5,232 bases of DNA, taken from an uncultured Fusobacteriaceae bacterium. GTDB taxonomy: Bacteria; Fusobacteriota; Fusobacteriia; Fusobacteriales; Fusobacteriaceae. The translations under genes and the position numbers were made by a program. The stretch covers positions 1 through 5,232 of the forward strand of contig CAMTJB010000098.1 in NCBI GenBank assembly GCA_947072715.1, given 5' to 3'. The notes beneath the pieces were generated by a model. That model had not been told where the DNA came from, made no database searches, and saw only the letters and a list, made by a program, of their open reading frames with translations. Of the stretch, positions 873 through 5,232 are shown piece by piece; the first letter of the stretch is position 1; each line of letters starts with the position of its first letter.

Positions 873-1229
873 TTATTTTTTCATAACTTTTTTTTCTATC
901 ATATCTTCCCATATATCAGGGGCATACCCCATTATTATCTGATTTCCTTTCCTTATAATAGGGGTTTTAAATAAAATTGGATTTTCTAATAAAAGTTCCT
1001 CTGTATCGTAGACCATATATTTTAAATTTCTTTTTGTATACTCTGTCCCTTCTATATCTAAAAGTTCCTCTATATCATATTTTGACTTTATTGCGTTTAG
1101 CTCACCTTTAGATGGACCCTTTTCCAAAATATTAATAAATTGATATTTTACTCCTCTTTCTTTAAAAAATCTTTCTGCTTTTTTACTATTATTACAACTT
1201 TTTTTCCCAAAAATTTGAATTACTACTAT
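873..1229 (-). CDS. ArsC/Spx-like thioredoxin-fold protein, apparent ATA start codon
   Basis: The coding frame runs 118 codons from an ATA at 1229 to TAA at 873, the normal size for the ArsC/Spx/YffB family. It begins V-V-I-Q-I-F-G-K-K-S-C-N-N-S, with the conserved N-terminal Cys12 in a CxxS motif, followed by K-K-A-E-R-F-F-K-E-R-G and later K-T-P-I-I with the fold's cis-proline at Pro90. There is no in-frame ATG, GTG or TTG between the upstream in-frame stop (1248-1250) and a TTG at codon 35 (1127). Starting at that TTG would remove the first strand and the catalytic cysteine. A good ribosome binding site (AGAGGTGA, 1237-1244) ends 7 bases before the ATA, exactly where an ATG would be expected. 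The arginines that bind arsenate in E. coli plasmid ArsC (Arg60, Arg94, Arg107) are not visible at the matching places, so an arsenate reductase role is doubtful; a thiol-redox or Spx/YffB-like role is possible. Monocistronic by context. Either a rare ATA start, a lost start codon (young pseudogene) or a sequence error. Confidence 0.75.
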   Translation of the reverse strand: MVVIQIFGKKSCNNSKKAERFFKERGVKYQFINILEKGPSKGELNAIKSKYDIEELLDIEGTEYTKRNLKYMVYDTEELLLENPILFKTPIIRKGNQIIMGYAPDIWEDMIEKKVMKK

Positions 1230-1236
1230 TTTAAAT

Positions 1237-1244
1237 TCACCTCT
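1237..1244 (-). promoter_or_regulatory. Ribosome binding site that places the ArsC-like start at ATA (1229)
   Basis: AGAGGTGA on the minus strand closely matches the anti-Shine-Dalgarno complement. Seven bases separate it from the ATA codon at 1227-1229. No canonical start codon lies in the right frame within its reach. A GTG inside this site (1237-1239) is in another frame and hits TAG after four codons. Confidence 0.7.
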
Positions 1245-1265
1245 TTTTTATTTATTATTTTTTAT

Positions 1266-1313: not shown

Positions 1314-1355
1314 AAATAAAAAAGCGATTCTAAGAACACTTTCTTAGAATCGCTT
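1314..1355 (-). terminator. Rho-independent terminator of the grdI-grdH-BCCT operon
   Basis: A perfect 15-bp inverted repeat (1322-1336 with 1341-1355) encloses a 4-base loop. On the minus strand it is followed by a T-rich run (six T including the stem end, then ATTT). The hairpin begins 4 bases after the transporter's TAA stop. It cleanly ends the betaine operon before the ArsC-like gene. Confidence 0.93.
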
Positions 1356-1359
1356 ATTT

Positions 1360-2838
1360 TTATTCTTTTTTCAATATCTTAACAAAAGATATTATACACA
1401 AAATCATCACTATAGCAAAAGGAAATGCTAAAGTTATTGAAGCTGTTTGTAACATTTGAAGTCCATTTGAACTTCCTAACATTAAACATAATGCAAATCC
1501 AGCTTGAAGAATTGCCCAAATTATTTTTTTGTTAGTAGATGGTTCTAAATCTCCATCAGAACTTAATATCCCTAGAACAAAAGTTGCAGAGTTCGCTGAT
1601 GTTATAAAAAATGTTGATAATAATATTATTGTAAATATATTAACCACTGTTCCTAATGGAAAACTTCTCATTATAATAAAGTAGGCTGTTGGTATAGATT
1701 TCATAGCTTCATCTATTACTTCTATTGGAGCATTTATAGCTATTCTTCCAAAAACTGAAAACCAAAAGAATGAAACTATCGCTGGAGCTAATAAAACCCC
1801 TGATACAAACTCTCTTATTGTTCTACCTTTTGAAATCTTAGCAATAAACATCCCTGTAAATGGTGCCCAAGCTATAAACCACGCCCAGTAAAAAAGAGTC
1901 CATGATCCATACCATTTATTATCTCCAAACGCCCCTATAGAGAAGCTATTAGACATAAAATTAGTAGCATAAATTCCAATTCCTTCTATGAATGTATTAA
2001 TAATATCTACTGTTGGTCCAAAGAAGAAACAAAACGTTAATAAAATAACTGCAAAATAAATATTAATATCTGAAATTATTTTTATCCCTTTTTCTAGAGG
2101 TGTTGATACAGAAGCGATTACGATTATTGTAGTAATCATAATAATCACTGCCTGAGTTTGCTTATTATTTGCTATACCAAATATATAATTTAATCCACTA
2201 TTGATCTGATAAGTTCCTAACCCCAAAGAAGTTGCTACTCCTGCTACAGTTGCAATTATTGTTAAAACATCAATACTCTTTCCTAAAAATGTTTTTTCAA
2301 AACCTTCTCCAAATAAAGGGATTAAAATAGAACTTATTAATCCTTTGTACGATTTTCTATATTGCATATATGCAAGGGACATTCCTATTATTGCATATGC
2401 CGCCCAAGGGTGCATTCCCCAATGTAGAAATGATTTATTAAAAGCAAACATTGCAGCTTCTCTAGTTTGCGGTTCTGCACCTAAAGGATTTAAATAATAA
2501 TTAATGGGCTCTGCAACCCCCCAGAATATCAATCCTACACCCATTCCTGCTGAAAAAAGCATTGCAAACCATGAAAACAAAGAATATTCAGGTTTTTCTC
2601 CATCTTTTCCTAAAGGTATATGCCCAAATCTACTAAAGTATGCTATCCATATTGAAAAAAATAGGAAGATTGCCATAGATAATACATAGAACCAACCAAA
2701 TTTTTGCGTAATTGTACTAAAAGCCCAATTAGCTGCACTACTAAAGTTATCTGGGGCTACAAGGCCCCAAACAACTACTAGTACAGATATTATAATAGAT
2801 GCTTTAAAAACTATTGTATTTCCTATTTTCTTATCCAT
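1360..2838 (-). CDS. BCCT-family betaine/carnitine/choline transporter, probably glycine betaine uptake
   Basis: A 492-residue inner-membrane secondary transporter with the expected 12-helix hydropathy pattern and only short hydrophilic ends. BCCT hallmarks are visible: G-M-G-V-G-L-I-F-W-G-V-A-E-P (98-111), the TM4 aromatic box Trp140, Trp145, Tyr148 (BetP Trp189, Trp194, Tyr197), and the signature W-T-L-F-Y-W-A-W-F (313-321). T-S-A-N-S at 413-417 matches the Thr/Ser pair of the BetP sodium site, suggesting Na+ coupling. Two features stand out: Phe321 replaces the second Trp of the usual W-A-W-W (BetP Trp374), and the C-terminal tail is too short to be the long osmosensing tail of BetP, which suits a nutritional importer. 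An ATG seven codons upstream (2859) overlaps the ribosome binding site, so the ATG at 2838 is chosen. It lies 30 bases downstream of grdH and ends in the terminator. Betaine as substrate is inferred from the operon; carnitine or choline cannot be excluded. Confidence 0.93.
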   Translation of the reverse strand: MDKKIGNTIVFKASIIISVLVVVWGLVAPDNFSSAANWAFSTITQKFGWFYVLSMAIFLFFSIWIAYFSRFGHIPLGKDGEKPEYSLFSWFAMLFSAGMGVGLIFWGVAEPINYYLNPLGAEPQTREAAMFAFNKSFLHWGMHPWAAYAIIGMSLAYMQYRKSYKGLISSILIPLFGEGFEKTFLGKSIDVLTIIATVAGVATSLGLGTYQINSGLNYIFGIANNKQTQAVIIMITTIIVIASVSTPLEKGIKIISDINIYFAVILLTFCFFFGPTVDIINTFIEGIGIYATNFMSNSFSIGAFGDNKWYGSWTLFYWAWFIAWAPFTGMFIAKISKGRTIREFVSGVLLAPAIVSFFWFSVFGRIAINAPIEVIDEAMKSIPTAYFIIMRSFPLGTVVNIFTIILLSTFFITSANSATFVLGILSSDGDLEPSTNKKIIWAILQAGFALCLMLGSSNGLQMLQTASITLAFPFAIVMILCIISFVKILKKE

Positions 2839-2843
2839 TAGAT

Positions 2844-2850
2844 CCTCCTT
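2844..2850 (-). promoter_or_regulatory. Strong Shine-Dalgarno that fixes the BCCT start
   Basis: AAGGAGG on the minus strand stands 5 bases before the ATG at 2836-2838. It lies inside the reading frame of the alternative upstream ATG (2859), which has no comparable site of its own. Confidence 0.85.
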
Positions 2851-2868
2851 ACTGCACATAAATAAGCA

Positions 2869-4185
2869 TTAAATTTTTACACTAAAAACTGTCTGCTCTT
2901 TTATTTCTTGAGTAAGAGAATCCAAAGCAACACCTACTCTATGATATCTTAACTTCCATTGTTCATCTAAAGATGTCTGTGGATTTCCTAATGGATAAGG
3001 GATTGATATAGTTGGAACGATTTTGTTAGCACCTACACTTTTTGCTACTGGTATTAAATTTGCCATTATAACTACAGGGAACCCTGCTTTTTCTATTACT
3101 TTTACCATCGTTGCCCCGCAACGAGTACAAGTTCCTCAAGTAGATGTCATTATAATTCCATCCACATTATGATCTCTTAGATGAACAACCATTTCTTCTG
3201 CCATTCTTGTAGCTTCTGCCTCTGTAGTTCCTGTTCCAACAGTTGTATAAAAATGAGTGTCAATTTTCCCTATCTTTCCTTCTTTTTCATATGCTCTAAG
3301 AGCATCTAGTGGTACACAAACATTTGGATCATTATCTGCTGCTGCTGGGTCATATCCAGCATGTATAGTTTTATATATACCTTTTTCTAATCTATCTAAG
3401 CCCGATATATCATACATTCCCCATCTTGTTGCTGAAGCTGATTGGATTCTATCTGGATTATTTACAGGAACAATACCTCCTGTTGTAACTAACGCTACTT
3501 TAGATTTTGATAAATCTTTTATAGGAGCCGCTATATCAACTCTCTCCATTTTAGGAATTGGCAACTCTGTTTCAAATTGTTCTCCTGATAGTTTTTTTAG
3601 TAGCATTTTAACCACACGCTTAGAAGCCTCTTCTCTCTCCTCAATTTGACCAGTTTGATGACGAATACTTCTTCCAAAGTATTGTTCCTCTTTTGCTGAA
3701 CCAAGTTGCTCCCCACAACATATTTTATTTACATAATCAGCCATAACTTTAGAGTTAGCTCTCATGCTAGCAGCACTTCCACCACCATTAAATATAACAA
3801 CATCTTTTTTAAACATTTCAACACCTGGATTTTCAATATGCATAGAACTAAAAACAGGAATATTATACTTTTCTTTTATTACTTTACATATTGTTCCACA
3901 TGCCACACCATATCTTCCAGCCTGAAAAGCAGGTCCTGCAAAGAAGAAATCAAATTCTTTTCCCTCTAACATTTTCATTATTTTTTCTATAGCTTCATCT
4001 GTTTTTGAACCCATAAAGTTATCTCCACAAATTACTGTATGGGTAATCTCTACATCTTTCAGTTGATTTTTTAATGCTAATCCAGAACCTATAACTCCCT
4101 CTCTGATTTCAGGTTCAAAATCAGCCATATTTTCTCCACCTATACCTGCAAAAAACTGATTTATATAAATAATCCCTTTTTTCAT
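2869..4185 (-). CDS. grdH: Betaine reductase component B beta subunit (GrdH), selenoprotein with in-frame TGA
   Basis: One 438-residue selenoprotein of the GrdB/GrdF/GrdH family, read through an in-frame TGA at 3136-3138 as selenocysteine 350. With GrdI it forms substrate-specific protein B of a Stickland-type reductase: it takes the substrate (here probably glycine betaine) and delivers a carboxymethyl group to the selenocysteine of GrdA, releasing the amine (trimethylamine). The sequence around the stop, M-T-S-T-U-G-T-C-T-R-C-G, gives the family's UxxCxxC motif (U350, C353, C356). The frame continues without shift to the typical C-terminal region (V-G-A-N-K-I-V-P-T, P-Y-P-L-G-N-P, ending near E-Q-T-V-F). 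Total length matches the family. A SECIS hairpin follows the TGA. The start at 4185 has an AAAGGGGG ribosome binding site, and grdI ends 13 bases upstream. Betaine over glycine or sarcosine is inferred from the GrdI partner and the BCCT gene downstream; another N-methylated substrate is possible. Confidence 0.94.
3098..3132 (-). promoter_or_regulatory. Bacterial SECIS element of grdH
   Basis: Starting 3 bases after the TGA, the mRNA can fold into a stem-loop. An outer ACUU/AAGU pairing (3129-3132 with 3098-3101) is followed by a G/A mismatch and UAC/GUA (3125-3127 with 3103-3105). After a 2-base UG bulge comes a perfect 7-bp apical stem (3118-3124 with 3108-3114) closed by a GGG loop (3115-3117). 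The loop begins 18 bases after the TGA and opens with G, both in line with known bacterial SECIS rules for SelB binding. The element lies within the coding sequence, as in other bacterial selenoprotein genes. Confidence 0.88.
3136..3138 (-). other. UGA selenocysteine codon (Sec350 of GrdH)
   Basis: The in-frame TGA lies between M-T-S-T and G-T-C-T-R-C-G, at the position where the GrdB/F/H family carries its catalytic selenocysteine. Conserved family sequence continues in the same frame on both sides. Confidence 0.95.
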
Positions 4186-4198
4186 ATAATCCCCCTTT

Positions 4199-5232
4199 CT
4201 AAAACTCTTCCATTAGTTTTTTAGACCAACCTATAACCATATCACCACAGAACATGCAGTTATTTTCAATTATAATAGAACCATCTTCTCTAACAGAAGG
4301 TCCTAACTTTTCATCACCTTCCCAACCTCCAGAGAGTCCATCTCTTCCAATTGATGCTAATTCTCCAATAACCTCTTTCATTGGTGGTAAATCTAGTAAC
4401 TGAGAAACATTTCCACAAGAAACTATTGCATCAGCTTTTATATCTAAAGCAACTAATGGCTGAGATTTTCCATCTCTTCCTGTACATTCATTTGTGATTC
4501 CTACTGTTTTTACCCCTACATCTTCTAGTGCAACATAACATGCTATGAAATCAGTATCTGGATTTCCATAACCTTCTTCAGCGAGTACTGCTCCATCAGC
4601 TCCTAAAGACTTTGCTATTTGTGCTACATATAAAGCTGATCTATTCTTTTGTTCTAATGAAACATTTAAGTTTGACATTATAACTCCTAAAAAGTTAATA
4701 GTTTTCCCATGTTCATTATAAAGTTCTTTTATTACAGGTGAATTTTGCATATCATAAGTAGCCCATTTAGATGATGAAGGCATAAAAGATCCTCCAACAA
4801 TTGCTCCATCCAATACTTCATTTGGATGCATAAATGTAGGAACCATTCTATTCATATCCCAACCATATAGCAAATCATTATATCCTAACTCTTCCATTTG
4901 CGATTGTGGCTGCATAACAAAAACTATATTCGGAAGTCCGTTTACTTCTTCTCCTCTCTTTGTTATTGCTGGCAATTCATAAATTTCAGTACTTTCAGGA
5001 ACAAGATTTTCCACTATTTTTCCTATATGTTCAGAAAGTTTCATTGCTGCCCATCTTATAGCTTTATTTTTTTTCTGTTGTTCGTGTCTTTCAAATTCTT
5101 CATCAGTATCTGCAACAAGACATATATTTATTAATTTAGAATAGTATGTATAATCTGCTCCTTTCCCTGACATGTCTACTATTCCATCTCCAAAACTTCC
5201 CCAATGTTTTCCTACTGCCATAACGCTCATAT
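4199..5232 (-). CDS. grdI: Betaine reductase component B alpha subunit (GrdI; GrdE/GrdG family), N-terminus beyond window
   Basis: The C-terminal 343 residues (counted from the first visible Met at 5230) of a GrdE/GrdG/GrdI protein; the frame is open to the window edge, and about 90 N-terminal residues are expected upstream, so that Met is internal. It partners GrdH in protein B of the reductase. Family landmarks include G-A-D-Y-T (24-28 of the visible part), D-G-A-I-V (141-145), E-E-G-Y-G-N-P-D-T-D (218-227) and T-N-E-C-T-G-R-D-G (246-254). GrdE and GrdG proproteins are self-cleaved at a cysteine after the G-A-I-V segment to give a pyruvoyl group. Here that stretch reads G-G-S-F-M-P-S-S-S-K with no cysteine, so cleavage is unlikely. 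This agrees with reported betaine protein B, isolated as two uncleaved subunits of about 45 and 48 kDa, and supports GrdI. A CxxC (C-M-F-C, 325-328) near the C-terminus is noteworthy. The grdH start lies 13 bases downstream, so the two are translated together. Confidence 0.88.
   Translation of the reverse strand, partial: MSVMAVGKHWGSFGDGIVDMSGKGADYTYYSKLINICLVADTDEEFERHEQQKKNKAIRWAAMKLSEHIGKIVENLVPESTEIYELPAITKRGEEVNGLPNIVFVMQPQSQMEELGYNDLLYGWDMNRMVPTFMHPNEVLDGAIVGGSFMPSSSKWATYDMQNSPVIKELYNEHGKTINFLGVIMSNLNVSLEQKNRSALYVAQIAKSLGADGAVLAEEGYGNPDTDFIACYVALEDVGVKTVGITNECTGRDGKSQPLVALDIKADAIVSCGNVSQLLDLPPMKEVIGELASIGRDGLSGGWEGDEKLGPSVREDGSIIIENNCMFCGDMVIGWSKKLMEEF

What the first reader, a model, noticed from the sequence alone, without database searches (positions are those of the whole stretch)
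2869..4185. Two apparent ORFs are one selenoprotein, GrdH, read through UGA
Seen: a 349-codon frame ends in TGA and the same frame continues without shift through G-T-C-T-R-C-G to a 79-codon tail; both halves look like GrdB/F/H proteins. Known: this family carries selenocysteine in a UxxCxxC motif. A standard gene caller would report a truncated gene plus a small hypothetical gene and miss the catalytic residue.
Basis: partly seen in the sequence, partly recalled or inferred. Interest (0 to 1): 0.8.

Follow-up and report, generated by a model that had tools for sequence, protein, structure and literature searches.

The report
Ordinary selenoprotein GrdH (betaine reductase)
The two apparent genes are one gene for a known selenium-containing enzyme subunit that breaks down betaine, in which a stop codon is read as selenocysteine; the reading is right, but the protein and its decoding are already well known.

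Summary
On the minus strand, 4185-2869 is one 438-residue frame with a single internal TGA (codon 350, 3138-3136) inside a UxxCxxC motif, ending in TAA. A SECIS_4 element (RF01990, 59.5 bits, gathering score 38) begins at the base after the TGA. The read-through product passes NCBI's GrdH cut-off (783 against 775 bits) and fails those of GrdB and GrdF. The 20 distinct family genes readable at the site all carry TGA, and the tail is under purifying selection. grdI lies upstream and a BCCT transporter downstream, a known betaine reductase layout. The window's own genome is not held; in the 11 genomes behind the fetched relatives, selA, selB and selD pass in 11 of 11 and tRNA-Sec in 9 of 11; both misses have contigs ending inside selB. 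GrdH as a selenoprotein, beside a BCCT transporter and in Fusobacteriia, is in print. New member of a known kind, low interest. A separate side lead, an ArsC-like gene without ATG, GTG or TTG start, may be worth more.

The parts
2869..4185 (-). grdH: betaine reductase selenoprotein B (beta subunit), 438 aa with Sec at 350
   Evidence: NF040795, 783 bits, cut-off 775; PF07355, 509.9 bits
3136..3138 (-). in-frame TGA decoded as selenocysteine (U350 of U-GT-C-TR-C)
   Evidence: same codon in 20 of 20 distinct family genes readable at the site
3098..3135 (-). bacterial SECIS element (Rfam SECIS_4, RF01990), begins at the base after the TGA, inside the coding sequence
   Evidence: 59.5 bits, E 1.1e-12, gathering score 38; 41-base stretch with the TGA folds at -11.3 kcal/mol, z -2.62
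4191..4198 (-). Shine-Dalgarno-like AAAGGGGG five bases before the grdH ATG
   Evidence: read from the sequence
4199..5232 (-). grdI (partial, runs off the window): glycine/sarcosine/betaine reductase component B subunit
   Evidence: PF09338 465.4 bits, profile positions 100-425 of 426; under the cut-off of the sarcosine GrdG model, 255.3 against 780; the name GrdI rests on its place next to grdH; a match lies before grdH in 11 of 11 loci
1360..2859 (-). BCCT-family betaine/carnitine/choline transporter, probably the betaine importer of this locus
   Evidence: PF02028 592.6 bits; TIGR00842 473.1 against 407.55; NF047988 glycine betaine BCCT 596.3, under its cut-off of 650; a match near grdH in 8 of the 11 loci
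1316..1355 (-). 15-bp perfect hairpin followed by a T run just after the transporter stop codon, terminator-like
   Evidence: read from the sequence; shows as a sub-threshold Rfam hairpin on both strands; no terminator scan was run

Best explanation
One gene, grdH, encodes the selenocysteine-containing subunit of the betaine-specific protein B of betaine reductase. The ribosome reaches UGA at codon 350; the SECIS hairpin that starts at the next base recruits SelB with Sec-tRNA, Sec is inserted, and translation runs on for 88 codons to TAA. With GrdI, the Sec in UxxCxxC would attack betaine bound on the partner subunit, release trimethylamine, and pass the two-carbon unit to the Sec of protein A and then to protein C as acetyl phosphate; the adjacent BCCT transporter would import betaine. 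Shown here: frame, single TGA, motif, SECIS match, family membership, conservation of TGA, purifying selection on the tail, neighbours, Sec machinery in relatives. Inferred: Sec insertion in this organism, betaine as the substrate, the catalytic steps (recalled knowledge of the family, partly supported by paper passages).
For: Single in-frame TGA and UxxCxxC. SECIS_4 at 3135-3098, and at the same place in 10 of the 11 loci; the contig of the eleventh (L010) ends before the site. GrdH model over its cut-off, GrdF 550.4 against 800 and GrdB 477.3 against 602.2 not. TGA at the site in 20 of 20 distinct genes read. Tail dN far below dS in the reading frame, mismatches by codon position 8/4/36 against L001. 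selA, selB, selD over cut-off in 11 of 11 genomes and tRNA-Sec in 9 of 11; the two misses have contigs that end inside selB. GrdA, itself with one TGA, in 7 of 8 GrdH-bearing genomes of the family, with a GrdA copy 3-4 kb from grdH in G062, G063 and G067. Sec at 352 of 440 listed for Clostridium sticklandii GrdH (PMC3091704, passages).
Against: The window's own genome is not held, so its sel genes are unseen. Three of 120 listed relatives have Trp at the site. tRNA-Sec is missing over the cut-off in G001, the genome of the closest genome-placed relative, in G003 and in G068, and G068 also lacks GrdA. The tRNA-Sec test is not strict: 5 of 14 control genomes pass its cut-off, whereas selA passes in 1 of 14. 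Covariation in the SECIS does not stand out: covariation score reached by 68 of 500 shuffles, one pair with two-sided changes. The GrdH score passes by only 8 bits. No protein or selenium-labelling data.
Confidence: 0.97

Rival explanations
1. UGA is read as tryptophan here (a code-4 organism), so the gene is a Trp form and not a selenoprotein.
For: Three database relatives carry Trp at exactly this site (P0003, P0004, P0005).
Against: The other genes of the window are open under table 11, with every Trp coded TGG; a SECIS lies directly after the TGA; TGA is the codon in 20 of 20 genes read, 11 of them in genomes with selA, selB and selD. One relative (L009) ends its grdH with a TGA in stop position. 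The three Trp proteins come from contigs of at most 1980, 2199 and 8311 bases and are most simply TGA translated by table 4; their DNA could not be fetched, so this is inference.
Confidence: 0.01
2. A broken gene: TGA is a nonsense mutation and the downstream piece is a relic or a separate small gene.
For: A standard gene call gives two ORFs.
Against: The tail has lower dN than the 100 codons before the TGA against all four relatives compared (0.073 against 0.167 with L001), and the same TGA is in 20 of 20 genes read.
Confidence: 0.01
3. A selenoprotein of the same family but with another substrate (sarcosine GrdF, glycine GrdB, or an uncharacterised one).
For: The paralogs share the motif; the GrdH cut-off is passed by only 8 bits; the transporter misses the betaine-specific cut-off (596.3 against 650).
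Against: GrdF and GrdB cut-offs are missed by about 250 and 125 bits; BCCT neighbour; relatives keep separate paralogs 47-51% identical to the window's protein, some beside grdA, as in G001, G002 and G010.
Confidence: 0.05

Closest known systems
GrdH, betaine reductase selenoprotein B (NCBIfam NF040795; KEGG K21579 as cited in PMC8547467)
   Same: Length, UxxCxxC with Sec near 350, SECIS after the UGA, component B partner and BCCT neighbours
   Different: Nothing of substance; 75% identical to the closest genome-placed relative (L001), 95% over the first 349 residues to an unnamed ENA protein (P0002)
GrdB (glycine) and GrdF (sarcosine) selenoproteins (TIGR01917, NF040794)
   Same: Same family, same place of the Sec codon
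   Different: Scores below their curated cut-offs
Rfam SECIS_4 (RF01990)
   Same: Full-length match right after the UGA; every SECIS_4 match in the 11 loci lies in a GrdB-family gene (10 at grdH, one in the L003 paralog)
   Different: No difference noted

Membership tests
GrdH (betaine reductase selenoprotein B) | Curated model score above cut-off over full length | tested here: met
   783 bits, cut-off 775, profile 1-435 of 435
GrdH (betaine reductase selenoprotein B) | Selenocysteine codon in UxxCxxC near residue 350 | tested here: met
   compare Sec 352 of 440 in C. sticklandii GrdH (PMC3091704, passages)
GrdH (betaine reductase selenoprotein B) | SECIS element directly 3' of the UGA | tested here: met
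GrdH (betaine reductase selenoprotein B) | Partner subunit GrdI next to it | tested here: met
   PF09338 gene at 4199-5232, partial at the window edge; no GrdI-specific model appeared, so the letter I is by position
GrdH (betaine reductase selenoprotein B) | Sec machinery (selA, selB, selC, selD) in the same genome | tested here: inconclusive
   Own genome not held; relatives 11/11, 11/11, 9/11, 11/11 over the cut-offs
GrdH (betaine reductase selenoprotein B) | Reduces betaine to trimethylamine and acetyl phosphate | not testable with these tools
   needs an enzyme assay
GrdF (sarcosine) | Curated model score above cut-off | tested here: not met
   550.4 against 800
GrdB (glycine) | Curated model score above cut-off | tested here: not met
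   477.3 against 602.2

The most novel reading that the evidence does not exclude
The UGA acts as a selenium gate: when selenium is scarce the 349-residue product accumulates and has a role of its own, so that trimethylamine formation from betaine in this Fusobacteriaceae-like organism is switched by selenium at the codon.
Probability: 0.03. Interest if true: 0.4.

Novelty: new member of a known kind. Interest (0 to 1): 0.12.

Why it matters
It corrects a gene call that automatic annotation splits (116 of 120 listed relatives are 345-362 aa long) and places a selenium-dependent betaine-to-trimethylamine enzyme in an organism close to Fusobacteriaceae. That is useful annotation, not a new principle: the family and its Sec residue (PMC3091704, PMC5029168), its clustering with a BCCT-type transporter gene and its presence in Fusobacteriia (PMC8547467) are in print (passages seen).

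Tried and rejected
Own-genome search for the family: not possible, no genome held. Covariation in the SECIS as independent proof: too few changes, not above the shuffles; the Rfam score carries that point instead. Solved structures by sequence: none at E up to 0.001. Structure prediction and fold search were not run, as they would not change the verdict. Papers that hold both 'Cetobacterium' and 'betaine reductase': 0 in the held library; the listings were seen as listings only, apart from the papers opened for passages. Plasmid collection: 6 records match, three over at least 80% of the gene, best Acetoanaerobium noterae at 69.0% over the whole gene; confirms the family only. One search translated the wrong strand and was repeated on the minus strand.

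Full report
OBSERVATION. The frame is on the minus strand (not stated in the finding). From the ATG at 4185 there are 349 sense codons, a TGA at 3138-3136, 88 further sense codons and a TAA ending at 2869.

WHAT IT IS. The read-through protein scores 783 bits with NCBI's curated betaine reductase GrdH model (cut-off 775), over the whole model, while the sarcosine GrdF (550.4 of 800) and glycine GrdB (477.3 of 602.2) models stay under their cut-offs. The two halves alone match adjoining parts of the same model, 1-346 and 357-435. Rfam's SECIS_4 matches from the very next base, 3135-3098, full length, 59.5 bits against a gathering score of 38. The 41-base stretch folds at -11.3 kcal/mol; 2 of 200 shuffles fold at least as well.

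RELATIVES. One scan of genome contigs gave 11 loci (the scan uses six short peptide patterns, so it finds close relatives only). Ten reach the site and these ten have TGA and a SECIS_4 there; in L010 the contig ends first. In 61 genomes of the family of G001, 13 matched, with 25 matches, 24 of them with an internal TGA and one of these with a further TAA; the cut-off gene of L010 is the one without. Over all loci fetched by then the motif could be read in 20 distinct genes (grdH and paralogs) and the codon is TGA in 20 of 20; L020 and L026 repeat L001 and L002 and were not counted twice. The pattern used there fixes the G[TS]C..C part and allows any residue at the Sec site, so Cys or Trp forms with that motif would have shown. 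For the matches that did not become loci the place of the TGA was not checked.

SELECTION. Between the window and L001 the 88 tail codons give dN 0.073 and dS 0.974, with mismatches 8, 4 and 36 at codon positions 1, 2 and 3; the 100 codons before the TGA give dN 0.167 and dS 0.680. L002, L021 and L023 agree (tail dN 0.125-0.144, dS 0.94-1.52). The tail is constrained in this frame. The covariation test of the SECIS is weak (93.8% of cells paired, but covariation score reached by 68 of 500 shuffles, and three of eight pairs broken in some sequence), as may be expected of a hairpin inside a conserved motif.

MACHINERY. No genome is held for the window. In the 11 genomes behind the loci, selA, selB and selD pass their cut-offs in 11 of 11, selD itself with an internal TGA in 10 of 11. 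Of the 14 control genomes 1, 2 and 2 pass (same calls). tRNA-Sec passes in 9 of 11 and in 4 of 5 further GrdH-bearing family genomes; this test is less strict, since 5 of 14 controls pass. The two misses, G001 and G003, have contigs that stop inside selB: the G001 match begins at base 5 of its contig, and the G003 contig ends at 5936 shortly after a partial selB match ending at 5781. In G002 the tRNA-Sec lies about 1.9 kb beyond selB, so a contig end is a sufficient, though unproven, reason. GrdA was found in 7 of 8 GrdH-bearing family genomes; G068 lacks both GrdA and tRNA-Sec.

NEIGHBOURS AND MECHANISM. Upstream is a component B subunit gene (PF09338, partial at the window edge), downstream a BCCT transporter. 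In the 11 loci a match to the upstream gene precedes grdH in 11 of 11, and a transporter match is near in 8 of 11: after grdH in seven, before grdI in L006, and none in L005, L007 and L010. In G062, G063 and G067 a grdA copy lies 3-4 kb from grdH. This is the grdHI plus opuD (BCCT) arrangement described for betaine reduction to trimethylamine and acetyl phosphate (PMC8547467, passages). Sec at 352 of 440 is listed for C. sticklandii GrdH (PMC3091704, passages). The catalytic scheme (carbonyl partner on the other component B subunit, transfer of the carboxymethyl group to the Sec of GrdA, acetyl phosphate from protein C) is recalled knowledge of the family and was not tested.

HOST. Inferred only: the nearest genome-placed GrdH is from an uncultured Fusobacteriaceae MAG (75%), and the named best relatives of the transporter are Fusobacteriaceae (73%) and uncultured Cetobacterium (69%).

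AGAINST THE READING. Three of the 120 listed database relatives (P0003-P0005; 4759 proteins passed in all, the rest not seen) have Trp where Sec should be. Their DNA cannot be reached here. They come from contigs of at most 8311 bases, and translation with table 4 is the likely cause. In the window itself every Trp in the other frames is TGG, so TGA as Trp is not the code of this organism.

NOVELTY. Glycine reductase complex selenoprotein B counts 261 selenoproteins in 146 organisms in a 2016 survey (PMC5029168, table passage). GrdH orthologs from Fusobacteriia were reported from a cold seep (PMC8547467, passage). New member of a known kind.

SIDE LEAD. Window 1250-873 (minus) holds an ArsC/Spx-like gene (PF03960, PF00462) with no ATG, GTG or TTG between the in-frame TAA and the conserved FGKKSC motif. 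The first plausible start is ATA at 1229-1227, eight bases after AGAGGTG. Of 31 relatives fetched from 30 of 61 family genomes, 4 (L040, L042, L044, L045) likewise have none and read GGAGGAG-ATTAAA-ATA-ATA-ATA or nearly so; one more (L046) has only a GTG that lies inside its Shine-Dalgarno-like stretch; 26 have ATG, 15 of them three codons and 11 two codons before the conserved Gln. In the four the first ATA stands where the 15 have ATG; in the window the ATA is one codon earlier. Conserved AUA and AUU starts with strong Shine-Dalgarno motifs that limit translation were reported for Staphylococcus aureus (PMC13009471, passages). A sequencing error is not excluded for the window alone. This deserves its own look.

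Noticed in passing
window 873-1250 (-); L040, L042, L044, L045, L046: ArsC/Spx-like gene with no ATG, GTG or TTG before its redox motif; ATA (1229-1227) after a good Shine-Dalgarno is the likely start. 4 of 31 Fusobacteriaceae-family relatives share the lack (L046 nearly so), 26 have ATG. Possible conserved AUA start that limits expression.
   Followed up: partly
P0003, P0004, P0005 (database proteins): Full-length GrdH relatives with Trp at the Sec site, from short contigs; probably TGA translated by table 4, DNA not seen.
   Followed up: partly
L006 (Mixta tenebrionis) and its genome G006: A grdH with SECIS_4 in a genome named as Mixta (Enterobacterales, recalled) that also holds a second tRNA-Sec match over the cut-off (C34:59096-59182) beside a second SelB-like match (C34:57930-59033, 280.5 bits), apart from the selA, selB and tRNA-Sec on C56.
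   Followed up: no
L009:11318-11320: The grdH of this Lachnospiraceae MAG has a TGA in stop position after its last codon while its internal TGA is the Sec codon: apparently both readings of UGA in one message.
   Followed up: no
genome G010 (Propionigenium maris): Two tRNA-Sec matches above the cut-off on one contig, C7:46259-46348 and C7:75537-75626.
   Followed up: no
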